A model generated the notes under the pieces. It did not search any database, was not told the origin of the DNA, and saw only the letters and a program-made list of their open reading frames with translations. This document shows positions 36,832 through 63,199 of a stretch of DNA of 64,000 nucleotides, one piece after another. The number at the start of each line of letters is the position of its first letter. Positions within the stretch are counted from its first letter, which is position 1. The position numbers and the translations under genes were made by a program. This DNA comes from Escallonia rubra. Lineage: Eukaryota; Streptophyta; Magnoliopsida; Escalloniales; Escalloniaceae. The DNA is taken from NCBI GenBank assembly GCA_033065855.1, contig JAVXUO010000982.1, positions 28,075-92,074 on the forward strand, in the 5' to 3' direction.

Positions 36832-36841
36832 TTGTTTCACA

Positions 36842-40857: not shown

Positions 40858-40888
40858 CGTCTAGCTCTACTATATAGTGGACATAAGG

Positions 40889-41430: not shown

Positions 41431-41448
41431 CTTAGAAGAACTCGATCT

Positions 41449-43530: not shown

Positions 43531-43780
43531 AGTCCAACAGAAACACAGTCTCCAAACACTTGGTTTTTACACTTTGTTTCCTCCTGGTCAAAGCAAATCA
43601 CACAGAACAAATCAAACACTCAGATCAACAACACAACGATATCAGTGAATCAAATCAATCGCATTCAACACCGATCACATCTCAGTTAACACAAATGAAA
43701 TCATCAATCGCATTCAACGATAAGATTCAACGATAAGGACAATTAAAAAGTGAATATAATGTTATTATAAGCAAACATTG

Positions 43781-46700
43781 TCAATTGGGGCCCTCAACCC
43801 CTGCGGGATCCCCCTTGTTACACGGATTTACAATAAATATAATAGCTCTAGGCCAGCCATTGATAATTTGCCAAGCCATCCTATACCTAAAGCAGTCTAT
43901 GCATTCTTGGCTCCAGACGGTCTTCTTGAGGCTCTCAGACCGACAGATGTAATCCATGTACATGCAGACGAAGACGCCGCAGTCCGAGGAATTAAGTTGC
44001 TTGGGCCTACTCCTCTTCAATCGGAGAACAAGCTTCGTATTGACCGGTGCCCTCTCTCGACGCTTACTATTGACCATGGCAGCAAATAGATTCTGCGAGA
44101 AACATAATAAGCATTAAACATTAAACATAGCAAACATAATAAGATTAATCAGTTCTACAATATGCAAGTTACAATAAGAAGTAAACATGATCTTACCATG
44201 GCATCCAACTGGCCTAAGCCTCGGTACATTTCAATCACACCCATCACGGGGGTATCATCGTAGAGACTGTCGAGGACTGATACGGTCTTCGCTACCGGTT
44301 CATAGCAAACCAAGTACCAGTGGGCATTCACTATAAATGGGATTAGAAACACGTCCGCCACACTTGCGCTCACTGGACTCGGCCGAGCAAGATATGCTTG
44401 TAGGTTAGCGGACGGTCTCCACTGGAGCTGGGCTTTCCCCTTTCTCGCTTGCCTCGCCTTGTCCCAGTCACCCCACTCTTGTACTAGGATGCCATGAAAG
44501 TAAGCATCGAGGATAAAAATGCGCGGACCGTAGTTAGGCTGCTCCCGACCCCTTTGCCTCAGAATTTACACGTAGTGCGAGATGACAAAGTTGTCTAACC
44601 AAGTTCCCGGTGCCAGCGAGGACAGTTCTCTCCACGAGGCATTGTAATCCAAGCCCTGCGGGTGATCCACGTCATACGACGCTTCGTCTGGGGGGGCCCG
44701 CTAAAATAACGGGCTCGGATTAGGTCATGTTTATGCGGCTTCAGGGGCCTGGCTGGATGCCCTTTCGGATATTGCCCTCGGGAGTCGACCGGTTGCTCTT
44801 GCCCTCCGTCGGGGGGCAAGAGCAACGAAAGAAATTGGACTCTAACCAACCGATCGGATGCTGATAATCGCCTTCGGGGGCCCCGGCCGTCTGATATTGC
44901 TCGCCGGCCATTTCTTTCGCCGGTTGATATTGCCCTTCGGCGGCACCAAGTGGTCCCGCCCACGGGACAATGGGCAGTGCCTCGTTGAAACCGTAAGGCC
45001 AGTCTTGCGTGACTTGACTCTGAGAGAGGGGTTGGGGTTCCGGGAACAAATTGAAGGTCGGGCCGCTGTAATCGGCCCACGACGCTTGAGCATGTCCCAT
45101 CCCCGGTACAGAGGGACCACCAACTCCCTGGCTCACCCCTGAAGCTTGCCCGGAGGGATCAACGTTATACGGGCTGACGCCCGTATAACCCATTCCCGGG
45201 CTGTCGACCGAAGACTGTCCCGATGCTTGTCGCACAAAATTCCCGCAGCCTAAAGCCAGTGCAGCAGCCTGTTGGCGAAGATCCTCGCCCATTGCGCTCA
45301 CCAGATCCTTCCGCTCACTCAACTTCTGGAAGAATGCAAGCGAGGCATTAACCTACATCCAAAGAGATAACAAATAAGTAACTTTAATCAGACATTTATA
45401 TTCAACATATACAAGACAAGTCAGACTAGTTGGGCAACTTATGAGATTGTATGCCATACGCTCGTCGATCTGACCCCTAGGCGCATACCTCTCCCCGCGT
45501 TCAAAGTTCACTGGGGCTACTCTCCTCCGCGTGATGCGGTAGTACCACTCATCGTACTGTTCGATGCTGATAACGGGGTCCGGCTCCGAGACGATGGCCG
45601 CCAGTGTGTCCTGCCAAGAAGTCCAAAGCTCTAGTTCGGCCGCGCACAATTCTTGCGCATTGGCCTTGCCAAACCGCCCGACATCCGGTGGGTCCCTGTT
45701 AACCCTCATATCTGGGGCACCGGCTGGCAAACCCTGCTCCAACTCAAAATGGCGCATTGCTCGGTCTGGCAGCTGCCACTCTGCGACCTCGAAGTGGATG
45801 AGGGGTGTGCGCTGCAACCCGGAGAGCGTGAAGACGAACGACTCTTCTACCCGTCGCGCCAAACGTATGTACGGTGCCCAACGCAATTGGCCCGGAGATA
45901 GACGGTCGAACTCCCCTCGATAGTACGTGATGTTGTGATGGGGATCGACTCTCCTGCGGTAGTGGCTATTCTTCCGGCTGTACTCCCAAGCACCTAACTG
46001 AGGCCACACTCTATCGGTTCCATCCCTACGCGTTGGTGCACCGGGAGCAAGGTGTTCATAAGACCACACCTGAGAACATGGGCAAATTATATTTATATCG
46101 TCGATTCAACAAAAGAAAAAACAAAAAAAAAACAATAACGAAGACAGGATTTATATGATATACCTGCAATAGCGAGAGACATGCACATATGGCTTTGGAG
46201 TCGGGCCTCGTTGCCTTGTGCAATGCTCGGTACAGATACGAAAGAACCGCTGCACCCCATGCATAATCTCCAACCTCAGCCAGGTTACCCAACAACGGTA
46301 AATATCTCACGCTGACCGTGTTCTTCGACGTCGTTGGGAATAATATTGCCCCCATCACCCACCAGAGGAAGGCTTGTGTGTACAGCACAAGGTCACGGCC
46401 CGTATAGTTTTCCGGCAAAACCCCGTAGGTATCTACCAACCACTTCAACTTGATACCACCACTGCTAAATTGATCCTGGGGTATCGAAGTTAAGAAGTCC
46501 CTAGCGGTTCTCTTATTCGTTGCTTCTGACGGAGGAGCAATTACCGGCCGCCCCGTCACCGGCAACCCTAAGATGAACCCTACATCTTCTAGGGTAATTG
46601 TCATCTCTCCGAGCGGGAAGTGAAACGTATTCGTTTCACTTCTCCACCTCTCAACAAGGGCACCTATCAAGGCCCGGTCAAGCTGTTGAAATATCTGCCC

Positions 46701-46983
46701 ATGCGTGAAAATCCCAAACCCAATTCCACGCAGTATCCTCTTCTGGGCGGTGTTCAGTTTCCACGATGTGAACTCGCGAGATACTTCTACGGTGTTGAGA
46801 AGTTCTCTTTCCTACGAATTAATAAATACAATTTAAGCAAAACAAACGGTATATACAACGTTCGTAAGAATAAGAAAGTCAATAAATAATGTATCTTACT
46901 CCACCATCCCATATGAGCGTACTGATATGGTTGGCTTGGTCGTATAACACGGATGGGTCTTCTGGTCCAGGGTTAAATTCCAT
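43781..46983 (-). pseudogene. PMD-Ulp1 fusion gene of family B MULE, disrupted
   Basis: Exons (minus): 46983-46900, 46811-46164, 46069 to about 45430, 45352-44197 and 44092-43781. Exons 1-3 code for a plant mobile domain (MEFNPGPEDPS; ALVERWRSETNTFHFPLGEM; TLEDVGFILGLPVTGRP; YLYRALHKAT; DRAMRHFELEQG). Exon 4 has a Gly/Pro/Gln-rich linker, then the Ulp1 (C48) fold with catalytic His in AHWYLV and Asp in VLDSLYDD. Exon 5 has the Gln and Cys in QLNSSDCGVFVCMYMDY. Defects are a frame change around 44740-44650, a TAA at 44566-44568 and a doubtful exon-3 donor. Ulp1 proteases cleave SUMO-type modifiers. PMD proteins of the MAIN/MAIL type act in silencing and genome stability. All catalytic residues are still visible. 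Confidence 0.85.
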
Positions 46984-47471
46984 TTTTTGCAACTGAAATT
47001 ATGGAAAAACCTTCTCAGTTTGGATTTTACGTTTTGGATTTTGATAATCGCTCGCAAAAATACGACGCTAGCACATGCATAATACATATAACGCAAGCAC
47101 ATGCATGATGCATACAATGTTAGCATATGTACTCATATGTATAATAGATATATATACATATACGGAATCGAATTTTACAAACGCTAGCACATGAACAAAA
47201 ACATAGATATATAAAACGCAATATTCATCACAACTATCGATTATAAACAAAAGCTAGCACATGCATATTACATATAACGCAAGCACATGCAAAAAATGCA
47301 TACAATGTTAGCATATATACTCATATGTATAATAGATATATATACATATACGGAATCGGATTTTACAAACGTTTGCACATGAACAAAAAACATACATATA
47401 TAAAACGCAATATTCATCACAACTATCGATTACAAACAAAAAAAAGTATAGATTTTGTGAACTTACGTGAT
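46984..47471 (-). other. 5'-UTR intron of family B PMD-Ulp1 gene, with duplication
   Basis: GTAAGT after CGATCAC (47470, minus) and TTTCAG just before TTGCAAAAATGG form a leader intron. It contains a tandem duplication of about 180 bp (47084-47262 and 47268-47440) with AGCACATGCA, ATACAATGTTAGCATAT and CAATATTCATCACAACTATC in each unit. Confidence 0.7.
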
Positions 47472-48027
47472 CGATTTAGGGTATTAAAGGTGTTCTTAAG
47501 ACGGAATTGCGCCGATCTGCTTGCCAATGCTGCTGGGAAATTTTGTGAGTAGAAAGAATGGAGAAGAGTGTCGTAGTTACTGTTTTTTGAACGTATATTG
47601 AATGTCCGTTATACAGTATCGCGGAAGGCTATTACGTCCGCGATACAGTATCGCGGATGACTATAACGTCCGCTACACTGTGTAGCAGACACTGTTGACG
47701 AGACAGATAAGGACAAGATAACCGTCATTGCCGAAAAGGACTGACGGCTCAGGACGTGACAGGTGTCAGTCTGGGGGACGTCCGCTATACATTGTCGCCG
47801 ATGTCTTTTTGCTGTCTCCCATCAGGACTTTAATGATGTCCGCTATACAGTGTAGCGGACAGGCGCGGAGGGGCAAAAAGGTAAAAAAAATCCATCCGTG
47901 ACACTGTATGGCGGACGACTGACAGTTTTCGAAAAACGCGCGATCTGGGCCGTCCATCTTTCAGGATGGACGGCCAGATCGCGCTAGCAAAATAGGCTAT
48001 TTCGCTAACGCTCTCAACGAATCAGCT

Positions 48028-48030
<3 letters not shown>

Positions 48031-48061
<31 letters not shown>
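48031..48061. repeat. (TA)n between the 12.3-kb MULE and a MITE
   Basis: A TA run separates the GGAGCTGATT end of the MULE from the GGAGTTGATC end of the MITE. A further TA run followed by (TG)n continues at 48257-48320. Confidence 0.93.
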
Positions 48062-48063
<2 letters not shown>

Positions 48064-48065
<2 letters not shown>

Positions 48066-48254
48066 AGTTGATCCTTTGCTAGCGCTAGCAACTTAACCTA
48101 AGTTGCTAGCGCGATCTGGCCGTCCACACGCGAGAATAGACGGCCAGATCGCACGCCACAACAGCAATTTTTTTCACCGTCCGCAACATAATGTAAATTA
48201 TCGTCCGCTACATTATGTTGTGGACGGTCAAATCGCACTAACAATGGATCACGA

Positions 48255-48256
<2 letters not shown>
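48064..48256. mobile_element. 193-bp MITE related to family B MULE
   Basis: Inverted ends are GGAGTTGATCCTTTGCTAGC and GGTCGTGATCCATTGTTAGT. They match the terminal sequence of the 12.3-kb MULE (GGAGCTGATCCGTTGAGAGC, followed in each by GCGATCTGGCCGTCC-type sequence). Inside are two diverged palindromes (CACCGTCCGCAACATAATG; CGTCCGCTACATTATGTTG). It is bounded by TA runs on both sides. Confidence 0.88.
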
Positions 48257-48325
<69 letters not shown>

Positions 48326-48513
48326 TTCACGAATTAAACAATTGGATAACATGATTTGAGTAAATGACTCTGTCTGTAACGTGTGCTAATTATTTAAAAA
48401 AAAAAATTGGCTGTTGATCAATGCATTATCTAGTTTCAATTATGACATCAGTTACTTTAAACAGCTAGGGTAAAAGCTTTTGCTTTGGTACTAGGCAAAA
48501 TGCCAAGATACTT

Positions 48514-49420
48514 AGGGCCGTTTGACAAGCCTTTTTTCCCCTCTTTTTTGGCCAAAATTTAAAATTTCTCAAGAAGCCCAAAAAACTGAGGTGTTTGGTG
48601 GTTCTTTAGTTTTTAAAAAAGCCCAAGACTTTAAAAAGAATGGCCTGTTTTAAAAAAGAGCTAATAGCTCTTTTTGAAACCCATTTTCACGCGGTTCGAA
48701 TGGCTGGATTAATGAGGTCTGGACTTCGAGTCTTCCTAGCAACATAAAATAAGATGGAAAAAACCAAAGAATTAAAACATTAGGGTTCTCATCTCTTCGG
48801 CCGGATCGCATCCGGGGGAGCATCTGCTCTGCTCGATCGGCCGCATCGCATCTCTCACGGAATCCACAGCCACCGCCTCCATTGCCGGTCACCGCCTCCG
48901 TCCCTTCTTTCTCCGGCGCAGCCACGAACATCGCATCTGGGGGAACAGATCGCGGAGTCCACAGCCACTGCCTCCATTGCCGGTCACCGGTCACGGCCTC
49001 TGTCCCTTCTTTCTCTGGCGTAGCCACGAACATCGCATCTGAGGGAACAGACATTCGCTGCTTTGCTCGATCGGCCGCATCGCATCTCTCACGGAGTCCA
49101 TAGCCACCGCCTCCAACGCAAAACACCGGTCACCGTCACCGCCTCCGTCCCTTCTTTCTCCGGCGCAGCCACGAATTGTAATATATTTGTTCAATATTGT
49201 TTAATTATGTTAAAATTAAAATAAAAAAATACCCCAAAGAGCTTTCCTATCAAACGCTTAGACTTTTCTTTTTTTGAAAAAATAAATCTATCAAACAGCC
49301 CCCAGTTTTTTAAACTGGTGAAAAAATAACCAGAACTCTTTTCATTTTTTTAGGAAAAAAATCTTTTCATTTTTTTAGGAAAAAAAACTGAAAACTTACA
49401 GTGTTACCAAACAGACCCTT
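48514..49420. mobile_element. MITE-like element with internal tandem repeats
   Basis: The left end reads AGGGCCGTTTGACAAGCC and the right end, reversed, AAGGGTCTGTTTGGTAACAC. These are the ends common in plant hAT-type MITEs. Inner parts are also inversely related (CAAACAGCCCC; poly-A/T blocks). The centre (48790-49170) is GC-rich and built of about 130-bp repeats marked by CCTCCATTGCCGGTCACC and TCTTTCTCCGGCGCAGCCAC. No clean TSD could be assigned and no gene is visible. Confidence 0.6.
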
Positions 49421-49618
49421 AGTTGCTGGATGGAAAAGTCTTCAAAATTTATCCCTTAGCTCCAGTAACCGAGATTCCTAATCTTTTGGACTCTTTCATA
49501 TAGCCAGCAATATAAAATTGGAGCCAACGGAGACAGAGGTTTATATTTTGATGCAATAATAATAGTGCTTTGCCAATGGAGATCCGATAATGGTGCTGTG
49601 CCATCACATGTGTACGTA

Positions 49619-49626
49619 GCTGGGCA
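49619..49626. repeat. hAT target-site duplication, left copy
   Basis: GCTGGGCA, identical to 53635-53642. Confidence 0.95.
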
Positions 49627-50116
49627 TAGAGTTGTCAAAAGGGCCGGGCGGCCCGTGGGCTGGCCTGACCCGGCCCGTTTCTGGCCCGGCCCTTTCGGTG
49701 AATAGTGACGGCCCAGTACAGTTGGGCTTGGGGCTAGGGCTTGGACCAGGAAATCTGGAATAAAGCCCGGCCCGGCCCGAAAAAAGCTCGGTTTTGGCCC
49801 GGCCCGGTTTTAGCCTGGTTCTGCGGCCCGGTTCGGGGCCTGGTTCTGGCCCGGGTCTGCTGCCCGGTTCGGCCCCACCTGGTTTGAATTTTTTGTTTTT
49901 CCCCCCTTTCTCCCACCCCCTTTCCTCCAACGGAAATATTCCTCCAAAATTCCACTTTTACCCCCCCAACAGCAATATAACGACTAGTTTGGGGGGTATT
50001 TTAGTCTAACTTAATTTTTCCAACTCCTTTAAAGGTTTTTACACTCTTACCCTCGCCAACAACTATAAACGGATAGTTTGTAGGGGTATTTTGGTCTTTT
50101 GTGAAGTTTCTAAAAT

Positions 50117-50125
50117 CTATAAATT
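50117..50125 (+). promoter_or_regulatory. TATA-like element of the hAT gene
   Basis: A CTATAAATT sequence lies about 430 bp before the ATG and is followed by a pyrimidine-rich leader with many AATTACTA repeats (50220-50420). Confidence 0.4.
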
Positions 50126-50548
50126 CACACCATTTCTCTCTAATTTTTCACACCAATCTTCTTACTCTCTCTTACCTAAACATTCTATATTTCTACAAGC
50201 TTTGCTACTATTTTCCTCTCCAATTACTACTCTTGCTAATTACTACTAGTATTTACTAATTAGTACTCTTGTTTATTAATTACTAGTCTTACTAAATTCT
50301 AATTACTAACTACTACTCTTATTAATTTGTTACTCTCTAATTCTTTTGTCTAGTAATTAGTAATTAGTGAATTTTTATTTATTAATTACTATTACTAAAT
50401 GCTTTTTAATTACTAACTCTCTCCACATTGGATCAGAATTACCCTCAGTGATTAATATTTGTTACTCGTTCATTCTTTTAATTGTTATTTCTTATTACTA
50501 CTCTTATACTTGTGTATTTAGTTACTCTTACAATTTTTAGCGTGAAAT

Positions 50549-52761
50549 ATGGCTGGATTATTGAAGAAAATGAGGCGTGCATCGTCATCACGAAAAACAT
50601 CATCATCATCGCAAGCACCACCACCAGCACAAGCGCCAGCGCTACGGCCATCACAAACACCAATCCAAGCACCAACACAACCATTCGTTCCTGGACGAAT
50701 GAGTACAGGCTGTATGATAGATACCCAAGCCAATTGGGAGTTCAATCAAAACATTCCAGATTTTGAATACACGCCTGATGAAGACCCCCCGCATTATAGT
50801 CAAGGACGCAGCTCGGTTGGCGAAGCTACTACTCCGTGGCATAATCTCAACCCTATGCCTGGTCATGATGAAGAAGGGCCGAGCAATGCCTCCGGTAACG
50901 TGCCAGAAGTCCAAAAGGGAAAAAAAAAGAAAGCCGAGTGTTGGAATCATTTCGATGTAGTTACGGTGGACGGCATCCGAAAAGCTCGATGTAAGTACTG
51001 CGCTAAATTATTTTCGTCTGGTAGTGGTAATGGACATCTTAACAGGCATTACCCTCAGTGTGCACCTCGACAAGGACACGTCGAACCTACCCAAACGCAG
51101 TTATCTTTTGACGGTAAGTTATTTGTTTATAATCAGCGAGAGCAAAGAGACGGTCTCGCTGAATTTGTTATTCATGATGAACAAGCCTTTTCTTTTGCCG
51201 ATAATCCTAAGCACTCTAGATATATGAACACATGCGTTCAACCTTTGTACAAAAAGGTTCATAGAAACACAACTAGATCCGATGCACTCTGACAGTACAA
51301 TGCTGCCAAAGCACGCCTTATCGATTATTTCGATAAATTTGACGGTAAAGTTAGTCTCACTTCTGATATTTGGCAATCTCCTTATACTTTTGTTAGTTAT
51401 TCTTGTGTGACCACTCATTGGATTGATGCAGATTGGGTTATGCACAAGAGAATCATCGCTTTCGAGCACTTTCCTTTTCCGCACGATGGAATGAACATTG
51501 CTATTCTTATATTAAAAGCATGTACCACATTTAAAATAAAGGATAAGATTATGAGTGTTAGTTTTGATAATGCTTCTAATAATAAAGCTGATGTTGCAGC
51601 TTTAAACGACACGCTTCAACCTGTACTTAATGGTGAATTATTTCATGTTCGCTGTGTTTGTCACATTATTAATTTAATTGTTCAAGATGGTTTAGTTGCT
51701 GCAGGAGATATTCTTGTCAAAATGAGGGGTATGACAGCGTATGTTAATAGCTCGAGTTTGAGAACACAACAATTTAAAACGTTGTGTGTTCAATATAATA
51801 TGCCTCGCAGGAGAGCAGTTACAGATGTGGTCCACAAGTGGAACTCTACATACCACATGCTTTTACACATTCTGGCATACCGAGAAGTCTATACGCATTT
51901 TCTACTAACCCAGTTCCCAGCCGGCTTGCCAACTCAAGAGGAATGGCAGATGGCCACATACCTAGCTGAATTTTTAAAGGCATTCTACACGTCTACCAAT
52001 TTATTTTCTGGTACATACTATCCCACCTCTCCTCTCGCTGTAATAGAAATTCTCAAGATGGCTACAATGTTAACAAAATGGAGATATATAGGACCCTTTA
52101 GGAAAATAGTAAAAGTGATGGATGAAAAGTTTAATAAATATTGGAGTAAACTGCCTGTTATTTTTACTGTGGCTACTTGTTTAGATCCTAGGTTAAAGTT
52201 GCATGGCGTGAACGCCTCGATATAAGAGATATCGAAATTAATGTGCTACAGAGCAGAGGAGACAACCGCACTCACAGCAAAAGTGAGCAAGAGGTTTGAG
52301 GACTTGTTCAACCTCTATCGTAATTCTGCTGACGTGCGGGGGCGAGCTACATCATCATCCACTGTTGAGAGGTATTATGCGCCATACCTTCAGGGCTTTG
52401 AACATCTAGTAGCAAGACAGCTACCAGGTGAAGGTACTTCTAATTCGGCAGGTCGTATACTTTTTCCTCTTTTAATGAGATTGGTGTATATGCAAATACT
52501 GATCATTATTTTGATTTATCAAGGCAAGAACAGGTTAATTTTAATTTGTTAAATTTTTGGAAACAAAATCAAAACATGTATAAAACTTTATCCCAAATTG
52601 CACGGGATGTGCTGCCAGTGCAAGCCTCCACGGTTGCTTCAGAGTCGGCATTTTCAGCCAGCGGGAGGGTTTTGGATGACAGGATGAGTCGTCTTAATCC
52701 CGAGTCGCTCGAGCTATGTGTATGTTGGAAGGATTATCTTGATGCGAAATACCGCGAGTAA
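50549..52761 (+). pseudogene. hAT transposase, three lesions
   Basis: It begins MAGLLKKMRRA. A low-complexity Ser/Ala/Pro N-terminus is followed by a BED zinc finger (CKYCAKLF...HLNRHYPQC, about 50985-51060), the catalytic core (TSDIWQSP, SFDNASNNK, RCVCHIINLIVQDGL) and the C-terminal hATC dimerisation motif (ASTVASESAFSASGRVLDD, about 52620-52680). Lesions are TGA 51290-51292, TAA 52223-52225 (both in the main frame) and a frameshift between about 52440 and 52480. The last exon-like part ends at 52761. Without these the product would be roughly 700 aa, normal for the family. As it stands it is inactive, although the ends could still be mobilised in trans. Confidence 0.93.
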
Positions 52762-53208
52762 GATAAACCGATTGATGATAGGAAGAGCAGTGACTCGGAT
52801 ATTGAAGTACTTCCGGATGATTAGGTAATTTGTTTTTATTTTCCTTCTCTTAAGTTTTAAGAATAAATTTTTTCACAAAATATACTTTTTTTCCATATAT
52901 ATAAAATAAATTTTTAAAAGCAAGATATATATTTTTTCGTATATATAAAAAAATAGGTAACTTCGCCTGTTTGTTTACAAGCCGGTCCCAAGCCCGGATA
53001 AAAGGAGGAGGGCCTATGAACACATTTATTTTTCTATACTTATTACTTAAGATCGTCTCGGGAATTAACATGTATCAATCCCGGGTTTTCGGCCAATTAG
53101 TTTGAAGTAAAATATCAAATAGTAGAAACAGTCTCTCTTAAATAGTAATAATTGTTATGTGTTCAGATTTTTATTAATAAAGATCACCAAGAAGAGTAAG
53201 AAAAGATT

Positions 53209-53270
53209 TAACATATAGCAAAAAATAAAATGAGAGACAAATAAATATATCTATACATACATATATATCT

Positions 53271-53325
<55 letters not shown>
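53209..53325. repeat. (TA)n and ATACAT-rich microsatellite inside hAT
   Basis: Imperfect TATCTATACATACA units grade into a pure TA run. It lies in the 3' untranslated part of the hAT element. Confidence 0.85.
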
Positions 53326-53327
<2 letters not shown>

Positions 53328-53634
53328 TATTACATATAATGAAATAAAAGGATAAAAATTAGATTTGTCAAATTTTGAAAATTGGACATGCCTAAACATG
53401 AAATTTAAAATTGAATAACAAGAAAATTAAAAAAAGGGCCCGGGCCGGCCCAAGCCCGACCCTAGAAATTAGGCCTAGGGCCTGGGCCTGGACTGGGCCT
53501 AGCATTCCTCCCCAGTCGGCCCGGCCCGGCCCGACCTGGATTGGCAGCCCCTTGGCCCGGCCCCGGCCCGGCCTCGCTTCAAGCCCGATGGACCCGGGCC
53601 GGGCGGCCCAAGGCCGGCCCGTTTGACAACTCTA

Positions 53635-53642
53635 GCTGGGCA
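53635..53642. repeat. hAT target-site duplication, right copy
   Basis: GCTGGGCA, identical to 49619-49626. Confidence 0.95.
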
Positions 53643-53868
53643 TTAGTTAAAGCTATTCACGCGTGCCATTTTGAAATAATGGATACATAAACTTATCATC
53701 ATAACAAAACAACAAAAATGACAAACTCAACGATATATTTGTCGTTATATCTTCGAGTGTCTGGTCAAAAGATGCCTTCGGATATGATTCTTTTTAATTA
53801 GAAGGAAGAAATATAGATTTGAGAGGTATCACATAATTTTGCTTTAACTCGACGGTCTGAAATCTAAT

Positions 53869-53890
53869 TTTATATATATATATATATAGG
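53869..53890. repeat. (TA)n abutting right MULE end
   Basis: The TA run directly precedes the terminal GGGGTTCGAT of the right MULE. Confidence 0.88.
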
Positions 53891-53933
53891 GGTTCGATAC
53901 ACACCCACCGGTGGGAAAAAAAATTTTTCCCAC

Positions 53934-54086
53934 CCAATCGCTTGACAGTCATGCGATTGCATAAAAAAAAAAGGACGGCTGGACTGGGCCATTTATGGCG
54001 AAAAGGGCCAATGATTGGCTTTGGGCCAATCGCCCGAAAGTCAGGCGATTGGGCCAAAGCCAATCGCCTGACTTTCAGGCGATTGG
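53934..54086. repeat. Palindromes inside the right MULE terminus
   Basis: Three units lie at 53934-53960, 54026-54052 and 54060-54086. The best has 12-bp arms CCAATCGCCTGA / TCAGGCGATTGG around CTT. They hold the same position as the different palindromes of the left copy (5755-5818). Confidence 0.82.
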
Positions 54087-54424
54087 CCCAATGCCCCGTC
54101 AGCCGCGCCGCTGTGGCCCAGCCTCCCCGTGGCCCCCACCTCTCTTCCCCACCCCCTCCCTTGGCCCCCCCCTCCCCCCTTCGGGGCAGTCACCCGAATT
54201 TCCCCTTGGCCCCCACCCCTCTTCCCCCTCCCCACTTGTTTATTCCCCCCCCCCCTAGGCCCCCACCCCCCTCCCCACTTGTCCAAAATTTTTCCCAGAC
54301 CCCCACCCCATTCCCCACTTGTCCAATTTTTTCCCTAGACCCCCACCCCCCCTTCGGCAGACCTTCCTCCCTCCAATTTGCTTGTTTGTTTTGCCCTCCC
54401 CCCTCCCACGGCTCACTTTTCTGC

Positions 54425-54433
54425 CTATAAAAA
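54425..54433 (+). promoter_or_regulatory. TATA box of right MULE transposase
   Basis: CTATAAAAA lies after a long C-rich tract (54110-54420) and about 170 nt before the leader-exon donor at 54599. It is the counterpart of 5472-5481 in the left element. Confidence 0.6.
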
Positions 54434-54598
54434 CCCTCTTCCCCCGAATTATTTCTTACACTCTCATCAGTCTCCCTATCTCACCTACATAATCTCCACA
54501 ACAATACGAGCGAAAAAAAATTTACGCTAGAAGATCGGTGGATAACCGCTAGAAGAAGATCGGTGGATTTCTTCGTCATTTTTTTCAAGTCAAAACAA

Positions 54599-56794
54599 GT
54601 AAGTATTTTGAATTTTCTTATAATTCAATGTTTATTTAAATTGTTGTTACGCTTAAATTGTTCTTACCATAGCCTAAAATTCGTGTTTAGGGCGTCAAAA
54701 TTACGTTTTTACAAATCGGGGTATTACATTCGAAAGATTCGAAAATAGCGATTTTTTAGGCCGTCAAAATTATGATTTTTCACGAATCTATAAAAAATAG
54801 CTAGAGCTAGATTTTGCCAAAGTACAAAAAAGAGACCCTAGTTATTTTTAAAATATCTGCATCATGTAAAAATTTCAGATTTTTCCAAATACTGGAAATG
54901 GGTTAACTGATACGCGCAACCTTGTAACTTCGCAGTGTACTTTAAAATATCAAGCTAGCGCGATTTCGCGCGAAACTTTTTTGAGAACCCTAGGATGTTG
55001 GAAAGTTCCATTCCCCATGAATTCGGGCCATTCCGAAGCCGGTAGCAATTTTTTGCCGAACGGGCTTTTTAGCGCTCGATCCGGACACCGGTTCGGGATT
55101 TTTTGACGAAAAATCCCTAAAATGCTTTTTAGATCAAGGATGCACTCAGCAACCTTCGAATAGCGTCTTAAAGCACGTTTGAGATTTTTTCCGATGCCAG
55201 GGGGCATTTCGGTTATTCGCCGCCCGATAGGGGTATTTTCGTAATTTTGCCCCTTTCAACTTTTTTGACATGGGATGCTTACTCCATAAATGTAAGCACA
55301 CCCTAGCGAAGGCGGGGAAGTTCCATTCCCCAGGAATCCGGGCCATTCCGAAGCCGGTTGCAACTTTTTGACGAACGGGCTTTTAAGCGCTCGATCCGGA
55401 CACCGGTTCGGGATTTTTTGACAAAAAATCCCTAAAATGCTTTTTAGACCAAGGATGAACTCAACAACCTTAGAATAGCGTCTTAAATCACTTTTGAGAT
55501 TTTTCCCGATGCCAGGGGGCATTTTGGTAATTCGCCGCCCGAGAGGGGTATTTTCGTAATTTCACGCTGTCAACTTTTTCGAGCGTCAATACTGTTCGTA
55601 AATGTAAGCACACCCTAGCGAAGGCGGCTAGGGTTACTCCCCACGAATCTGGGCCATTCCGAAGCCGGTAGCAATTTCTTGCCTATGAAACTTTTAAGCG
55701 CTCGATCCGGACACCGGTTCGGGATTTTTTGACAAAAAATCCCTAAAATGCTTTTTAGACCAAGGATGAACTCAGCAACCTTAGAATAGCGTCTTAAATC
55801 ACTTTTGAGATTTTTCCCGATGCCAGGGGGCATTTTGGTAATTCGCCGCCCGAGAGGGGTATTTTCGTAATTTCACGCTGTCAACTTTTTCGAGCGTCAA
55901 TACTGTCCGTAAATGTAAGCACACCCTAGCGAAGGCGGCTAGGGTTACTCCCCACGAATCCGGGCCATTCCGAAGCCGGTAGCAATTTCTTGCCCCGAAT
56001 TATCTTTTAAGCGCTCGATCCGGACACCGGTTCGGGATTTTTTGACAAAAAATCCCTAAAATGCTTTTTAGACCAAGGATGAACTCAGCAACCTTAGAAT
56101 AGCGTCTTAAATCACTTTTGAGATTTTTTCCGATGCCAGGGGCATTTTGGTAATTCGCCGCCCGATAGGGGTATTTTCGTAATTTCACGCTGTCAACTTT
56201 TTCGAGCGTCAATACTGTCCGTAAATGTAAGCACACCCTAGCGAAGGCTGATTTGAAGCCGTTTCGCGGGGCGTTGGGGTCCTAATGAACCCCGGGCCAT
56301 TTCGGTAATTTGCCGCTCATCGGGTTCTATTTTCCTAATTTTACATTACACGAATTTCCCGAACCACTTTTAGTTCAGGAAAGGGTGTGAGACATCCGAA
56401 AAGTTATACTTTAAAGTTGTGAATTAGATAAAGCTTGTTGGGGCGATGACTGAAAAACTATGAAGCTTTTCTGATGGCAGGGGGCATTTTGGTAATTCGT
56501 ATTCCCGAGAGGGGTATTTTCGTTACTTTGCCCCTTTCAGTTTTTCAAATGACTGCTTCGTCCAGAAATGTAAGCAAAGCACCTGAAAGGTGCTTTCGAA
56601 GCTGATTTGGGGCGTTATGGTGATAATGAACCCCCGGGGGCATTTCGGTAATTTGCCGCTCATCGGGGGCTATTTTGGTAATTTTACATTATACTAATTT
56701 TCCCCGCTATTACACTGCAAATAGAGTCCATTCTTCTTTTATTTAATTCTATGACTTGTTGAGAATGATATAATTTTTATTTTTTAGATTTCAG
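54599..56794 (+). repeat. 5'-UTR intron of right transposase with about 313-bp repeats
   Basis: Donor CAA/GTAAGT (54599) and acceptor TTTTAG or TTTCAG (56787 or 56794). Inside, units with TCGATCCGGACACCGGTTCG recur near 55075, 55388, 55702 and 56013. Each also has GGGGCATTTTGGTAATTCGC and GTAAGCACACCCTAGCG. No coding sequence. Confidence 0.82.
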
Positions 56795-56801
56795 TATAAA
56801 T

Positions 56802-59102
56802 ATGGATGCAACTGGAGGAAATATTTTTTGTGAAGGTTCTGATCCACCTTACTTGGATCAAGTTTTTCAAACACTTGACGAAGTCGAAGCATACTACAGA
56901 GCATATTCGAAAACGATGGGTTTCGGTATTCGAACTAAGACGAGTAGAAAACGGGTGAATACCGATCAAATTGGTGCAAGGTTATTTGAGTGTCATAGAG
57001 GAGCACCGCATGTACCCCCGGTCGTTCCGATCAGTGACGAAGGGACAACAAGACAAAGAAAACGCGACACATTTCCGGGTACCGGCTGCAAGGCCCATGT
57101 GTATGCAGTACACCGGAAAAAAGAAAACCATTGGGTTGTGACGGGAGTGGACTTGAGTCATAATCATCAGTTGATGACTCCCAGTAAGATTGGTCAAATT
57201 CATCAACACCGAGAAATTAGCGCGGCACACAAACAACTGATTTTTACAATGGCCGGGGCTAAAATTCCACCTTCTAAGATGATGGGGGTTTTCTCAAGCC
57301 AGGCTGGGGGGATTGACAAGTTGAGTTTCAACGACGTAGACCTTCGAAATGAACTTCGTGCTCAGAAGAGAGAGTCTTTCGGTAGGAATGATGCTCAAGC
57401 TACCATTGATCTCTTCAGGTGCCTTCAGAGTGAGAATTCTGGATTTTTCTACAGTATCCAACTCGATGATGAGAACCGCATTAGTACTATATTTTGGGCG
57501 GACCCCCGTTCTATAGCTGCTTACCTAAATTTTGGGGATGTTGTGACGTTTGACACCACATACCGCACCAATAAGTACTCTATGCCTTTTGCTCCGTTCA
57601 CGGGGGTGAACCACCACTATCAGTCAATCTCGTTTGGCTTTGCCCTGCTTAGGGATGAGACGGAGGAGTCATTTACGTGGTTATTTGAAACGTGGCTTCA
57701 AGCAATGTATCGTATTCCTCCACAGACCATCATCACCGACCAAGATCTGGCAATGAAAAATGCAATCGCTAAGGTCCTTCCAGATACTCACCATGGCCTG
57801 TGCACGTGGCACATAAGCAACAAATATCCCGAACGGCTTCACCATGTATATGCAAACCATCCGGAATTCAAGACTGACTTTAATACATGTGTGAAGAAAT
57901 CGTTGACGGTAGACGTGTTCGAGGAGAGGTGGGCCACGTTAATGGATGACTACTCTTTGCACAATCATGACTGGTTACAATCGTTGTATGCGATCAAGAC
58001 ACAGTGGGTCGGTGCCTACACCAAGAAGTTTTTTGCAGCCGGAATGACTACGACCTCGAGAAGCGAAGCTATGAATTCATTCTTTGATGGGTACGTAAGC
58101 CAGTCTTCAAGTATAGTGGAGTTCGTACTGGAGATGCAGAAAGCCGTTGATAGGCAATTGTACCGTGAGAGAGAAGCCGACGCGGCTACGGCTTACAAGG
58201 AAAGAGCCATACTACTCTTTTCACCTTTGGAGGCTCATGCGGCTCAAGTCTATACCAAGGAAATGTTTAGACAGTTTCAAGAAGAACTACTAAAGTCGAA
58301 TCAATATGGCATGACAAAGTTGCACGAGTATTCCACCAGAGAGCTCAAGGTTTATGCTTTGACGAACGTAACGAATTTTCCCAATCCGTGCTCTTCGTCG
58401 ACTCCGAGGAACAGAAGACATTTTACCGTGGCTAAATGTATGGACACCGGGTTGGTAAATTGCAACTGTCAATTGTTTGAGCATAAAGGTATACTTTGTC
58501 GACACGCGTTGAGGGTTTTGATCTCGAAGAATGCTAGTGAAATCCCTCAACAGTATATCTTGGAACGGTGGACGAAGGAAGCCAATAGAGTCCACGGTCA
58601 CATTCCTTACGTGCCCAATGTTTCAGTTGATTTCGAGCAATCTGAGCCGCTGCGATATAATCACCTTTGTAACATCATGCACAGTTTATCATTGGATGCA
58701 GCGTCAACGTTTGATGGGTACAAGTATCAAGTTGAAGCAGCCGCACGGGATACGGCTAAGCATGCACAGTTTAGGATGGCTGATCCACAAAGACGGGACA
58801 CTCCGACTACTCGGACGACTCGAGCCGGTAGATTCAATCGAGGCAAACAGCCAGTCATTGACGGCACTAGCATGCAAGGTGAGGAGGACGACATTTTTGA
58901 TCCAATTATTTCTCAAACAAAAGGGCGAAAACGAGAAATACGCATGAAGAATCCGATTGAAAAAGAAACGGGTCAAAAAAAATTGCGAAAGTGTGCGTTG
59001 TGTAATAAGATGACTGATCATGACAAGAGAAACCATTATAAAGCGTTAGGTCTTGCACCTGGCAGTATGGTCGAGGAGGACGATGATGATGAAGAGTGTT
59101 AG
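56802..59102 (+). CDS. MULE transposase, MURA/FAR1-like, intact 766 aa
   Basis: It is the closest relative of the protein at 632-2923; most residues are identical and the few differences are scattered. It has the FAR1-type zinc-binding N-terminus, FDTTYRTNKYSMPFAPF (Asp near 250), TDQDLAMKNAIA (Asp near 313), CTWHISNKYPERLHHVY, SRSEAMNSFFDG (Glu near 420), SWIM finger CNC...CRH (553-569), C-terminal CALCNKMTDHDKRNH and acidic EEDDDDEEC end. It has one open exon, with the ATG about 7 nt after the splice acceptor. All expected catalytic and zinc residues are present, so it could be functional. Transcription probably starts in the element end. Confidence 0.95.
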   Translation: MDATGGNIFCEGSDPPYLDQVFQTLDEVEAYYRAYSKTMGFGIRTKTSRKRVNTDQIGARLFECHRGAPHVPPVVPISDEGTTRQRKRDTFPGTGCKAHVYAVHRKKENHWVVTGVDLSHNHQLMTPSKIGQIHQHREISAAHKQLIFTMAGAKIPPSKMMGVFSSQAGGIDKLSFNDVDLRNELRAQKRESFGRNDAQATIDLFRCLQSENSGFFYSIQLDDENRISTIFWADPRSIAAYLNFGDVVTFDTTYRTNKYSMPFAPFTGVNHHYQSISFGFALLRDETEESFTWLFETWLQAMYRIPPQTIITDQDLAMKNAIAKVLPDTHHGLCTWHISNKYPERLHHVYANHPEFKTDFNTCVKKSLTVDVFEERWATLMDDYSLHNHDWLQSLYAIKTQWVGAYTKKFFAAGMTTTSRSEAMNSFFDGYVSQSSSIVEFVLEMQKAVDRQLYREREADAATAYKERAILLFSPLEAHAAQVYTKEMFRQFQEELLKSNQYGMTKLHEYSTRELKVYALTNVTNFPNPCSSSTPRNRRHFTVAKCMDTGLVNCNCQLFEHKGILCRHALRVLISKNASEIPQQYILERWTKEANRVHGHIPYVPNVSVDFEQSEPLRYNHLCNIMHSLSLDAASTFDGYKYQVEAAARDTAKHAQFRMADPQRRDTPTTRTTRAGRFNRGKQPVIDGTSMQGEEDDIFDPIISQTKGRKREIRMKNPIEKETGQKKLRKCALCNKMTDHDKRNHYKALGLAPGSMVEEDDDDEEC

Positions 59103-59189
59103 GGTTAATGTTTCAGTTGTATAACGAATAACGTTTATAATGTTTAAATTTGTGATTTGGTTTGTTGAATCTTTAATTTGTGATTTGGT

Positions 59190-59940
59190 TTGTTCTTCCG
59201 AAAAATCTCGTAATTTTTTTTGTCATTTCTTTTTTGCTCATTGCACCTCAGGCACGCTAGTTAGCCCATTCGTAAGAATTTCGGCGAAAAACGAGACACA
59301 TTATTTTTTGGGTTTTCCTAGGAAGGCCTATTCGGGCACACTTTAGGGCACAATTCATAGCTTCCGAAAAATCTCGTAATTTTTTGTCATTTCTTTTTTG
59401 CTCATTGCACCTCAGGCACGCTAGTTAGCCCATTCGTAAGAATTTCGGCAAAAAACGAGACACATTATTTTTTGGGTTTTCCTAGGAAGGGCCTATTCGG
59501 GCACACTTTAGGGCACACTTCATAGCTTCCGAAAAATCTCGTAATTTTTTTTGTCATTTCTTTTTTGCTCATTGCACCTCAGGCACGCTAGTTAGCCCAT
59601 TCGTAAGAATTTCGGCGAAAAACGAGACACATTATTTTTTGGGTTTTCCTAGGAAGGGCCTATTCGGGCACACTTTAGGGCACACTTCATAGCTTCCGAA
59701 AAATCTCGTATTTTTTTTTTGTCATTTCTTTTTTGCTCATTGCACCTCAGGCACGCTAGTTAGCCCATTCGTAAGAATTTCGGCGAAAAACGAGACACAT
59801 TATTTTTTGGGTTTTCCTAGGAAGGGCCTATTCGGGCACACTTTAGGGCACAATTCATAGCTTCCGAAAAATCTCGTAATTTTTTTTGTCATTTCTAGTT
59901 AGCCCATTCTTTTTTGCTCATTTCTTTTTTGCTCATTGCA
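59190..59940. repeat. 165-168-bp tandem array 3' of right transposase
   Basis: CTTCCGAAAAATCTCG recurs at about 59196, 59361, 59526, 59693 and 59861. Each unit also holds CTCATTGCACCTCAGGCACG and GCCTATTCGGGCACAC. It is the inverse of the array at 1-535. It separates the convergent transposase and PMD-Ulp1 genes. Confidence 0.93.
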
Positions 59941-59942
59941 CG

Positions 59943-62900
59943 CTAATTAGGATAATGGTAATGAAGCCATCTAGCTTCATTTTTTTTCAGCTCCCAGGCT
60001 ATCCTATACCTAAACGTCAAGGCAGCCTTCCTTGTCCACGACGTATATCTGAGCACCTCCGAGCGAGCAATGTAGTCCATGTACTTGAGGACGTAAATCC
60101 CGCAATCATGACTGTTATATTGCTTTGGTCGGTCATGTATCATCTCGACCGTCCAAGGATCTACCGTCGAATTCCTGGTGATGGATTCCCCCGAATAATC
60201 TCGGCACGCTAGCGAGAAGATAGTAGTCTGCATGTAACAATAAAAAAAGGTCATCAATATATGTTACAATAAGAATATACTATGAGCCAAGGTCAACCGA
60301 AAAAAACTAACCACTGCAGTGATGTACTCGCTGTATGTCTGTGCCAGCGACCGAAAGGGAGAGTCCTCCCGTAGGCTATCGTATATGTTGACCAATCTGT
60401 TCGCTGGATAGAGAACTAATAGGAACCAGTGGTGTTCGTGATGGCAAGGCATCATGACAAGGTTCGCATGAGCAGCGTGACATTGATTCTCTGCGGTCAA
60501 CAGGGCTAACAAGTTTCCAGCTGGTTTCCACTTACCCATGCCTGCCCCTCGCCTCCTCCACTTCTGTGAACTCCCTCATGCTGGTCACCATTAATGGGAC
60601 AAGATAAGTGGGATACATGTTAATATTCAAATCTTCGCGCTGGTTATAACGTAGCTCTCTAATCCGGAGCAGATCTATATACGCGTTCATGACAAAATTT
60701 GAAATATCTGTCTCCGGTGCCAACATTCTCACATCCGTGTGACCTAGCAATGTTCCAAGAGGAAAGTCTGTTGAATCGTTGACAGGCTCAGGCCCGAAGT
60801 AGTGCTGGTCGATCCAACCCCGCTTCCATCGCCCCAATGGCTTTGTCGCTTGTCCTTTATCCGACCGGTTGCTTGGGCGCGAGGCCTGGGTGCCTACTTG
60901 GGTCACTTGACTCTGGCGCTGAGAGTCGTACGTGTCAGGAGGCAAGCGACTAGACGGCTCCCACACCTGACTCTCGGGCTGAAACCCGTACGCGTCAGGA
61001 GGCAAGCCACTAGACGGCTCCCACACGACGTTCGGGCATGTACGCGTCAGGAGGCAAGCCACTAGACGGCTCCCACACCTGACTCTCGGGCTGAAACCCG
61101 TACGCGTCAGGAGGCAAGCCACTAGACGGCTCCCACACCCGACGTTCGGGCTACGCGTCAGGAGGCAAGCCACTAGACGGCTCCCACACCTGACTCTCGG
61201 GCTGAAACCCGTACGCGTCAGGAGGCAAGCCACTAGACGGCTCCCACACCCGACGTTCGGGCTATGTACGCGTCAGGAGGCAAGCCACTAGACGGCTCCC
61301 ACACCTGACTCTCGGGCTGGGGCTGAGAGCCGAACGGGTCAGGAGGCAAGCGAGTAGACGGTTCCCCTTGGTAACCCCGGTACGCAACACCAAAGTTGTG
61401 AAGATCAGTCTTGTACGACTCAACGGAGCTCTTGAAACTGTCAGGCGCATGCGCGACATACCAGTCAAACCGCTCGAGCTGCTTGAACATCTCAGTGCCC
61501 TTGTCAACCTACAAACATGCATAGACAAATCACCGTCATCATTTCAGGCATGGTCGAGAAGGTGCGCAAATAAATATTGAAACGACACTCAAGCTGACTT
61601 ACAATGCTCAATGCCCAGAACTGGTCATAGACCTCACGTGGCGCGTACGATGACGTCCTCACTTCGGAAGGGCGATTCACCCTCGTGCGCGTCACCCTGA
61701 GAAACCACTGTAAGTATTCCTCAGTACTGGTGCCGTCGTCCTTGAGCGATACAAGGCTATCATACGTTTCCTGCCAGGTATTCCACTGATCCACCTCGTC
61801 ACCCAACAAAATCAAGGCATTAGCCACCTCGAAGTTCGGCCCTCGACCACCCCTGTATGGCCGCATGTCTACAGCGAGTTTTGGAATCCCTTGTGGACAG
61901 CCAGCTTGCTTCATAGCTCGATCGGGCATCTGAAACTCACATACTTCGAAATGAATAAGTGGCACCCGAACCAAACCTGCCAGCACGTACGACACCGGCA
62001 GTTGCCAACACGTCTCATCCAACCGATGCATCACCTTCCCATATGGCTGCCACGTCACCAGGGATGCATCCATCATATCTAGTTCCCCCCGATAGAACAT
62101 TAGATTGTGGTGAGGGTCTACCCGTTTAGTCCGTCTGGGCCTAGGCCCCCAGGCCCACACCCTAGGCCACGTCTCATCGGAATCAGCTACGGGCTGTGGA
62201 CGACCCGTGGGTAGCCTCTCGTAAGACCAAACCTGTGAATGCAAACATAATATGGAATTAGTTATTAATCACGAATATATTGACACGTCAACGAAGAATA
62301 TTAATGCTCAAACCTGTAACAGAGTGATGCAGGCGGCAATGGACTTGGCACCCTTTCTCGTAGCTTTGTGCAATGCTCGATATAGGTGCGCAAGGACAGC
62401 TGAACCCCACGAATACGAGTATACCTCCCCAAGATCCTCCAAGAACACCATATACTTCGGATGCACCGTGTTTTTTTTTTGCGTCGGAAGTAATATAGAT
62501 CCAATAATATACAAAAGGAATGCCTTCGTATACACCGAAAAATCATGAGGAGTGTATTCATCCGGTAGCTCGCCGTACTGCTCTCTCAGCCATTTAAGTT
62601 TTATGCCGTTGGTTGTAAGAGCTTCCCTTGGAATTCCCGGAAAATACTGCATAGCCATCTTCGCTATGGATGCAGACCCATTACTCGAAGTAATGGGTCT
62701 ACCGTGACATGGGATTCCAAGTATAAATCCAACGTCCTCTAATGTAATAGTCATTTCACCAAACCGGAAGTGAAATGAGTTCGTCTCGCCCCTCCATCGT
62801 TCAACTAGAGCAGATATAAGGCAATCGTCGTGCCGAGCCCAAATCCCGCAATCGGTGAACACCGTCAAATTTTGATCTCGCAGTAGTTCTATTTGTTCCT

Positions 62901-63045
62901 CATTCAGTACCCACTCGGAATGGCCACTTGTGCTTTGACGTGTTTCCAAAACACCCCTATCGACACCGTTAAATACGTGCCTCGCGACGTGGTCATCGTC
63001 ATCGTATAGGATTGATGTATCATGAGGTCCAGGGTTGAAATCCAT
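59943..63045 (-). CDS. PMD-Ulp1 fusion gene of family A MULE (frame changes in linker)
   Basis: Exons (minus): 63045-62314, 62232-61603, 61508-60312 and 60227-59943. All junctions are GT...AG and the first two are phase 0. Exons 1-2 give a plant mobile domain (MDFNPGPHDTS; ALVERWRGETNSFHF; TLEDVGFILGIPCHGRP; HLYRALHKAT; DRAMKQAGCPQG). Exon 3 has a Pro-rich repeat linker and the first half of the Ulp1 fold (His in HHWFLL, Asp in NIYDSLRED). Exon 4 has Gln and Cys in QYNSHDCGIYVLKYMDY. The frame changes once inside the 60-bp repeats (61230-61060) and back near 60535, so either the gene is broken or these two places contain errors or unusual splicing. Function by domain: SUMO-type protease joined to a PMD protein. 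A 5'-UTR intron acceptor (CTTACAG) lies 2 nt before the ATG. Confidence 0.85.
60940..61320 (-). repeat. Coding minisatellite in the PMD-Ulp1 linker
   Basis: The unit is about 60 bp and contains GTCAGGAGGCAAGCCACTAG and GGCTCCCACAC (plus strand). In the linker frame it gives WEPSSGLPPDAYGFQPESQV. Six or so units occur, some shortened (CCGACGTTCGGGC in place of CTGACTCTCGGGCTG). The shortened units change the frame, giving an alternative CGSRLVACLLTRTGF reading. Confidence 0.9.
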
Positions 63046-63199
63046 ATCTGTAAGAACAAAATATAATCGTACATTAACTTAGCGTCCATAATATTTACAT
63101 TCCAAAACTGTAACTGAATCGTTAACCTAGCTTACCAACGCAATAACAATAGTCATTAAATCATTACTTTAATGTATGAAAACCATTCCTCACTTCCCA

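What the first reader, a model, noticed from the sequence alone, without database searches (positions are those of the whole stretch)
43781..63045. Two MULE families carry a PMD-Ulp1 fusion gene opposite the transposase
Seen: in the 12.3-kb element and in the right element a minus-strand gene faces the plus-strand transposase. Both code for a plant mobile domain, a variable linker and an Ulp1-type protease with His, Asp, Gln and Cys in place, and share splice positions. Known: Ulp1-like genes occur in plant MULEs (for example Kaonashi-type) and PMDs are linked to transposons; maize MuDR has mudrB convergent to mudrA. Inference: the fusion is a conserved accessory factor (anti-silencing or SUMO-related) that has kept the mudrB position in two lineages. 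I do not know of a description of this exact fusion.
Basis: partly seen in the sequence, partly recalled or inferred. Interest (0 to 1): 0.92.

Follow-up and report, generated by a model that had tools for sequence, protein, structure and literature searches.

The report
Jumping genes carrying a fused PMD-protease
Two related plant jumping-gene families each carry, facing their transposase, the decayed remains of one shared gene that joins a plant mobile domain to a SUMO-protease-like domain; it resembles known transposon genes that switch off host silencing, but its function is untested.

Summary
Elements A (35742-48030) and B (about 54450 to beyond the window end) have FAR1+MULE+SWIM transposases (Jittery-like). 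Each has a convergent minus-strand gene with PMD (PF10536), a variable linker and Ulp1 (PF02902) with His, Asp, Gln and Cys. Three phase-0 introns correspond. The two proteins align end to end, so the fusion is most simply ancestral. An uninterrupted 909-aa PMD-Ulp1 protein is annotated in Heracleum sosnowskyi (P0003).

Corrections: both window copies are broken as sequenced, and A's transposase too. PMD antisense in MULEs, and ULP in Jittery-like MULEs, are each in print; in 10 searches of open papers I saw no description of the fusion.

New here: A holds a 23-bp palindrome at 30 places (up to 5 mismatches), all outside its transposase and PMD-Ulp1 genes; one more lies just outside A. That layout resembles the targets of VANC anti-silencing proteins, which carry the PMD-like DUF1985 domain and, in KIU versions, Ulp1. 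Best reading: a VANC/KIU-like anti-silencing factor built on PMD. The anatomy is shown; the function is inferred. Copies elsewhere in the genome are untested because the genome search did not complete.

The parts
35742..48030 (.). Element A, a 12.3-kb Jittery-like MULE set in (TA)n on both sides
   Evidence: Inverted repeat 35709-35994 / 47777-48062, 286 bp, 92%; (TA)n at 35707-35741 and 48031-48062
36842..39495 (+). Element A transposase (FAR1, MULE, SWIM), broken by an in-frame stop near its start and a 359-bp tandem duplication at 37940-38657
43781..46983 (-). Element A PMD-Ulp1 gene remnant: exons 46983-46900, 46811-46164, 46069-45443, 45352-44197, 44092-43781
   Evidence: Pfam PMD and Peptidase_C48
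42882..43568 (.). Element A array of a 77-bp unit carrying the 23-bp palindrome, just past the 3' end of PMD-Ulp1
39683..39889 (.). Element A array of a 56-bp unit carrying the same palindrome, just past the transposase
47604..47690 (.). Element A 32-bp units carrying palindrome variants, upstream of PMD-Ulp1
35911..36113 (.). Palindrome sites in and next to the left end of element A (a site in the right end at 47838-47860)
54450..64000 (.). Element B, second Jittery-like family, cut by the window end; left limit approximate
   Evidence: Start taken from where homology to copy C begins; inverted ends
56802..59102 (+). Element B transposase, 766 aa, open
59943..63045 (-). Element B PMD-Ulp1 gene remnant: exons 63045-62314, 62232-61603, 61508-60312, 60227-59943
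   Evidence: Pfam
60927..61319 (-). 60-bp (20-aa) minisatellite inside the linker of the element B fusion; the frame changes within it
55012..56248 (.). Element B left-end array of 311-bp units (inverted counterpart 63215-64000)
59195..59896 (.). Element B array of 167-bp units between the facing 3' ends of its two genes
632..2923 (-). Copy C, a second open transposase of the B family; its accessory gene, if any, lies beyond the left edge of the window

Best explanation
Shown: two Jittery-like MULE families each carry, convergent with the transposase, the remains of a multi-exon gene joining a plant mobile domain to a C-terminal Ulp1 cysteine protease through a variable, in B partly repeat-built, linker; the two genes are homologous along their whole length. 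Inferred: they descend from one ancestral fusion, and the protein is a transposon-encoded anti-silencing factor that works like VANC/KIU of VANDAL MULEs. It would find its own element through short motifs amplified in the element's non-coding DNA (for A, the 23-bp palindrome), through the PMD and/or the variable linker. It would then use the protease to strip SUMO from silencing proteins, or the PMD to interfere with the host MAIN/MAIL1 PMD silencing complex, so that the transposase is expressed.
For: Domains in both copies. End-to-end alignment with 46% identity over 446 PMD codons and 31% over 226 Ulp1 codons, third positions changing most (PMD 0.395/0.345/0.65; Ulp1 0.571/0.451/0.668), as expected if both parts were once under protein-level selection. 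Three corresponding phase-0 introns. Uninterrupted PMD-Ulp1 in Heracleum, P0003, with the catalytic residues aligned to SENP1. PMD tree: A, B and P0001-P0004 lie on one side of a 100/100 branch from 47 other plant PMD proteins, many annotated MAIN-LIKE 2. Palindrome: 30 sites in the 6503 bp of A outside its two main genes, 0 in the 5851 bp those genes span, none in the three smaller ORFs checked, 1 elsewhere in the window, in several different repeat units. VANC parallels: DUF1985 domain, tandem repeats inside the protein, and targets amplified as non-coding tandem repeats (PMC5735166 passages); VANC genes with Ulp1 (KIU) as told by the review PMC13317346. PMD and DUF1985 show weak similarity: 12 of 31 rows at E<=0.01, best 4.3e-7.
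Against: No expression, binding or methylation data. The palindrome was picked after seeing the sequence and could equally be a transposase site. In element B no motif passes a fair chance test: the 9-mer tried (11 sites) is shared by only two kinds of unit, and by my arithmetic about 0.4 such coincidences are expected. No covariation between palindrome arms beyond shuffles (134 observed, 133.8 mean). Both window copies are broken. Only 1 of the 120 listed hits (466 in all; 346 not seen) carries both domains; P0001, P0002 and P0004 gene models lack Ulp1. A search with B's Ulp1 part alone found nothing. The structure model of P0003 had low confidence (mean pLDDT 46.4), so no fold support. The genomic context of P0003 is unknown.
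Confidence: 0.42

Rival explanations
1. Passenger: an ancestral MULE captured a host PMD gene and a Ulp1 fragment (transduplication); the fused gene was carried along and conferred nothing.
For: MULEs capture genes and Benjak 2008 suggests ULP transduplication by MULEs happened several times (or that ULP is often lost) (PMC2528002 passages). Both copies here are broken while B and C transposases are open. Element A also carries a B3-domain ORF that may be captured.
Against: Third-position excess and retained catalytic residues across two diverged families, three corresponding introns and an uninterrupted 909-aa relative in Heracleum speak for long selection. The gene keeps the same place in both elements.
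Confidence: 0.22
2. Transposition helper: the protein aids the transposase (stability, nuclear SUMO state, excision), as is supposed for mudrB of MuDR, and the palindromes are transposase sites.
For: Same convergent layout as mudrA/mudrB (recalled). Palindromes also lie in the terminal repeats, where transposases bind (recalled).
Against: Palindromes also fill internal arrays between the genes, which would be unusual for a transposase site (my judgement). The closest studied architecture, VANC/KIU, is anti-silencing.
Confidence: 0.22
3. PMD and Ulp1 are two adjacent separate genes, joined only on paper.
For: P0001, P0002 and P0004 gene models show PMD without Ulp1, and the third intron of A lacks a GT donor.
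Against: In the models of A and B the linker and the first part of Ulp1 share one exon. B has GT-AG at the joining intron. P0001 and P0002 read on from PMD into the linker exon at the same place. P0003 is one 909-aa annotated protein with both domains. P0001 ends within the linker and P0004 ends a few residues past that junction, as truncated models would.
Confidence: 0.07

Closest known systems
VANC / KIU (KAONASHI) anti-silencing proteins of VANDAL MULEs
   Same: Accessory gene of a MULE. A domain (DUF1985) that PMD proteins resemble weakly. Internal tandem repeats in the protein. Ulp1 in the KIU form (told by review PMC13317346). Targets are short motifs amplified in non-coding tandem repeats (PMC5735166).
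   Different: Here PMD, not DUF1985. FAR1-type Jittery-like transposase, not VANDAL. Long inverted ends present. No activity shown.
PMD genes antisense in MuDR-type MULEs (Dupeyron 2019, PMC6446971, Table 1)
   Same: PMD gene on the strand opposite the transposase, listed as antisense for group 42 and for some or most members of groups 47-50.
   Different: The main text has 0 occurrences of protease, ULP, peptidase or C48. The plant Jittery subgroup is listed with FAR1 only.
MULE-borne PMD fused to the transposase in grasses and Amborella (Ikeda 2017, PMC5418596)
   Same: PMD in a MULE; the authors speculate on anti-silencing (passages).
   Different: There the PMD is described as fused with the transposase; here it is a separate convergent gene fused with Ulp1. 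The text has 0 occurrences of Ulp1.
ULP-bearing Jittery-like MULEs of grapevine and melon (Benjak 2008, PMC2528002)
   Same: Jittery-like element with ULP sequence downstream of the transposase.
   Different: 0 occurrences of 'plant mobile domain' and 'PMD'; ULP discussed there as transduplication (passages).
Host MAIN / MAIL PMD proteins
   Same: PMD core.
   Different: The MAIN-LIKE 2-named hits listed have no C48 among their precomputed domains; 47 listed PMD proteins, many of them so named, form a separate group with short branches in the tree.
SENP1 / Ulp1 SUMO proteases
   Same: Catalytic His, Asp, Gln and Cys aligned; SENP1 E=2.1e-5 for the P0003 domain.
   Different: Distant; substrate unknown.

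Membership tests
Jittery-like (FAR1) MULEs | Transposase with FAR1 DNA-binding domain, MULE core and SWIM | tested here: met
   all above Pfam cut-offs (A split over two ORFs); no transposase tree was built
Jittery-like (FAR1) MULEs | Terminal inverted repeats | tested here: met
   A 286 bp 92%; B 515 bp 97%
Jittery-like (FAR1) MULEs | 8-bp target-site duplication | tested here: inconclusive
   A sits in (TA)n on both sides so a duplication cannot be told apart; B right end is outside the window
PMD family PF10536 | Whole PMD profile above the curated cut-off | tested here: met
   B 230 bits, profile 15-346 of 347; A 242.8 bits, 12-346 of 347; cut-off 34.9
Ulp1 / C48 peptidases | Profile match plus catalytic His-Asp-Gln-Cys | tested here: met
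   B 63.1 bits, A 50.2 bits, cut-off 20.7, both on read-through proteins; residues
Ulp1 / C48 peptidases | SUMO-cleaving activity | not testable with these tools
   Needs enzyme assay
VANC / KIU | DUF1985 domain | tested here: not met
   B 26.2 bits against a cut-off of 35.1; A no match at E<=0.1; PMD is the better match. So not filed as a VANC, only as working like one
VANC / KIU | VANDAL-type transposase partner | tested here: not met
   Partner has a FAR1 domain; Table 1 of PMC6446971 lists none for VANDAL
VANC / KIU | Cognate motif amplified in non-coding tandem repeats of the same element | tested here: inconclusive
   Strong palindrome in A, not established in B; binding unknown
VANC / KIU | Induces loss of DNA methylation at its own family | not testable with these tools
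   Needs transgenic plants
mudrB | Sequence homology to mudrB | not tested
   Only position compared; mudrB layout recalled

The most novel reading that the evidence does not exclude
Jittery-like MULEs of campanulids carry a second, PMD-based class of sequence-specific anti-silencing factor. It is a mimic of the host MAIN/MAIL silencing protein fused to a tethered SUMO protease, guided to its own family by a co-amplified 23-bp palindrome, and it shares with VANC/KIU a common 'PMD-like domain + variable repeat linker + Ulp1' plan.
Probability: 0.22. Interest if true: 0.85.

Novelty: new variant of a known kind. Interest (0 to 1): 0.6.

Why it matters
Host PMD proteins silence transposons in plants by an unknown mechanism, while MULE-borne PMDs and Ulp1 domains have been reported separately without a known role. 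A conserved fusion of the two in one transposon gene suggests that PMD and SUMO removal act in the same process. The palindrome arrays of element A give a concrete DNA target to test. If it works like VANC, anti-silencing by sequence-specific MULE proteins would extend beyond VANDAL elements.

Tried and rejected
Own-genome survey: the genome search was asked 12 times and never answered, so copy number and co-travel of PMD, Ulp1 and transposase are untested.

Protein searches: the single-sequence search with A found 2 proteins (which scored only the 7989 candidates sharing most words); the Ulp1 part of B found none among 1483 candidates; the A+B profile found 466, of which 120 are listed.

Structure: AlphaFold of P0003 with 31 rows gave mean pLDDT 46.4, with the Ulp1 region almost all under 50. 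I ran no fold search because a poor model gives meaningless matches.

dN/dS of the fusion: not computable, synonymous sites saturated. For the B and C transposases the ratio is 0.51 (NG86, dN 0.072, dS 0.143), 0.60 (LWL85) or 0.56 (YN00), which says nothing about the accessory gene.

Motif of element B: TCGTAATTT has 11 sites, all in B arrays, but it was chosen after looking and is shared by only two kinds of repeat unit (about 0.4 expected by my arithmetic); dropped as evidence. Palindrome arm covariation: none beyond shuffles.

Tree rows: 47 proteins were picked by hand from the 116 listed after P0004; the program warns of long branches, and there is no outgroup from other PMD clades. Whether those 47 lie in transposons was not checked.

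Literature: 10 searches of open papers. Some listed papers holding two or more of the terms were not opened (for example PMC4583175, PMC9569675, PMC6117577), so the absence is of what I saw. Subscription papers are mostly not held. Sasaki 2022, Hoen 2006 and Fu 2013 were looked up and not held; they, van Leeuwen 2007 and Babu 2006 are known here only through citing papers or recall.

One search was a filing that did not fit the form.
Full report
Where it is. The nearest proteins in the database come from Escallonia rubra: P0001, 97% identical to the element A protein over 64% of it, and P0002, 87% over 52%. The window is therefore probably from Escallonia or a close relative. P0001 is not identical to A, so it is another copy or allele.

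The elements. Element A runs from 35742 to 48030, between inverted ends of 286 bp at 92% identity, with (TA)n directly outside both ends. Element B begins near 54450, judged by where homology with copy C starts, and its right end lies beyond base 64000. Its inverted ends contain arrays of a 311-bp unit. Copy C, at the left edge of the window, is a second member of the B family in the opposite orientation; its accessory gene, if present, is outside the window. The transposases have FAR1, MULE and SWIM domains. Dupeyron et al. 2019 (PMC6446971; section 6 with Table 1 read, plus passages) list FAR1 at the N-terminus and SWIM or CCHC for the plant subgroup of Jittery; I built no transposase tree. 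A and B transposases are 52% and 48% identical over two stretches. B and C transposases are both open, over 766 and 763 codons, with dN 0.072, dS 0.143 and ratio 0.51 (NG86). A's transposase is broken by an in-frame stop near its start and a 359-bp tandem duplication, 350 of 359 positions identical.

The facing gene. On the minus strand A has five exons (46983-46900, 46811-46164, 46069-45443, 45352-44197, 44092-43781) and B has four (63045-62314, 62232-61603, 61508-60312, 60227-59943). These are models from sequence, not from transcripts. The last three introns correspond, all phase 0 and 81 to 104 nt long: two at identical aligned positions, the third coincident and one residue apart. A has one more near the N-terminus. 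Translated and read through with X at frame changes and stops, B matches PMD at 5.9e-68 and C48 at 4.2e-17, A matches PMD at 7.6e-72 and C48 at 3.8e-13. Catalytic His, Asp, Gln and Cys are in place in A, B and P0003; the P0003 domain aligns to SENP1 at E=2.1e-5 with those residues matched.

State of the copies. Neither is an open gene as sequenced. In A the joining intron has AT where B has GT, the frame changes twice in the linker exon and a stop lies in the Ulp1 part. In B the frame changes inside a 60-bp minisatellite, which also holds a stop, and again within Ulp1. Sequencing error cannot be excluded for the changes in runs and repeats.

Is it one gene? In both models the linker and the first part of Ulp1 share an exon, and the intron before it joins them to PMD. 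The E. rubra proteins P0001 and P0002 read on from PMD into the linker exon at that junction. Heracleum sosnowskyi P0003 is a single 909-aa annotated protein with PMD (3.7e-59) and C48 (1.3e-21). Against: P0001 stops within the linker, P0004 (Daucus) stops a few residues past the junction, and P0002 runs from PMD into a PPR region. None of the three shows Ulp1. Among the 120 listed hits of 466, one carries both domains; the other 346 were not seen.

Age and selection. A and B share 46% identity over 446 PMD codons and 31% over 226 Ulp1 codons; third codon positions differ most in both parts. Synonymous change is saturated, so no dN/dS is given for the fusion. In a tree of 53 PMD rows, A, B and P0001-P0004 stand on one side of a 100/100 branch from 47 other plant PMD proteins, many annotated MAIN-LIKE 2. 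The rows were picked by hand, the program warns of long branches and there is no outgroup. One ancestral fusion predating the split of Escallonia from Apiaceae is the simplest reading; convergence is not excluded.

Non-coding repeats. Element A carries a 23-bp palindrome, GTCCGCTATACNNTATAGCGGAC, found by eye and then searched for. The tool lists 43 matches on both strands with up to 3 mismatches, which are 22 places, and none in 100 shuffles of the window (shuffles do not model tandem repeats). With up to 5 mismatches there are 31 places: 30 in the 6503 bp of A outside the spans of the transposase and PMD-Ulp1 genes, none in the 5851 bp of those spans, none in three smaller ORFs of A, and one at 48203 just outside the element, in adjoining DNA that resembles A's own left end. 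Eight of the places are exact and belong to one array; the others lie in units of 56 and 32 bp, in and near both ends, and singly, so this is not one array copied. The arms show no covariation beyond shuffles. Element B has arrays at both ends and between its facing genes, but the one motif I tried there does not survive a fair chance test.

What is known. PMD genes antisense to the transposase are listed for several MuDR-type groups (PMC6446971). ULP sequences are described in Jittery-like MULEs of grapevine and melon (PMC2528002, passages). Ikeda et al. 2017 (PMC5418596, passages) report PMDs captured twice by MULEs, there as fusions with the transposase, and speculate on anti-silencing. [quoted passage not shown] PMC10398659 passages). 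A 2026 review says that some VANC genes contain Ulp1 (KIU) and act on their own kind, citing Sasaki 2022, which is not held (PMC13317346 passages). PMD-type rows hit DUF1985 weakly in 12 of 31 cases, so the two domains may be distant relatives. In the Amaranthus EPSPS cassette PMD and Ulp1 are listed as separate genes (PMC5240378 passages). In 10 searches I saw no description of the fusion, but some listed papers were not opened, and subscription literature and Repbase were not searchable.

How it most likely works. Shown: the anatomy, whole-length homology, retained catalytic residues and palindrome layout. Inferred: the PMD or linker brings the protein to repeated motifs in its own element, and the protease removes SUMO from silencing proteins there, or the PMD competes with the host MAIN/MAIL1 complex. 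It works like VANC/KIU in my reading, but is not filed as a VANC because DUF1985 and the VANDAL partner were tested and not met.

Verdict. A real and probably ancient accessory gene in a decayed state, combining two associations each already known. New variant of a known kind; interest 0.6.

Noticed in passing
39981-40538 (+): Element A also holds a B3 DNA-binding domain ORF (PF02362, E=6.4e-8) just past the transposase, apparently with one intron; possibly captured, or a further DNA-binding accessory.
   Followed up: partly
41449-41910 (-) and 42245-42631 (+): Two further ORFs in element A, related to each other (37% over 65 aa, E=5e-13) and with no Pfam match above cut-off.
   Followed up: partly
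40883-41015 / 41295-41427: A 133-bp inverted repeat (94%) inside element A with palindrome sites between its arms, possibly a nested small element.
   Followed up: no
48031-48152: DNA directly right of element A resembles A's own left end after (TA)n (83% over 124 positions), so a related element may be adjacent; insertion into (TA)n microsatellites may be a target preference.
   Followed up: no
37940-38657: 359-bp tandem duplication inside the element A transposase (350 of 359 identical); recent, or an assembly artefact.
   Followed up: partly
1-524 and 59195-59896: Copies B and C of one family share a 167/168-bp array just past the transposase.
   Followed up: no
50546-52225 (+): hAT-like transposase remnant (hAT-like RNase-H E=1.4e-11; BED finger just under the cut-off).
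   Followed up: no
13776-17944 (+): Ty3/gypsy-type retrotransposon remnant (gag, protease, RNase H and integrase pieces).
   Followed up: no
18517-20592 (-): Cytochrome P450 gene in two ORFs.
   Followed up: no
P0002 (Escallonia rubra): Annotated protein joins a FAR1-like C-terminal stretch (by eye only), the PMD and a PPR region; probably a merged gene model.
   Followed up: no
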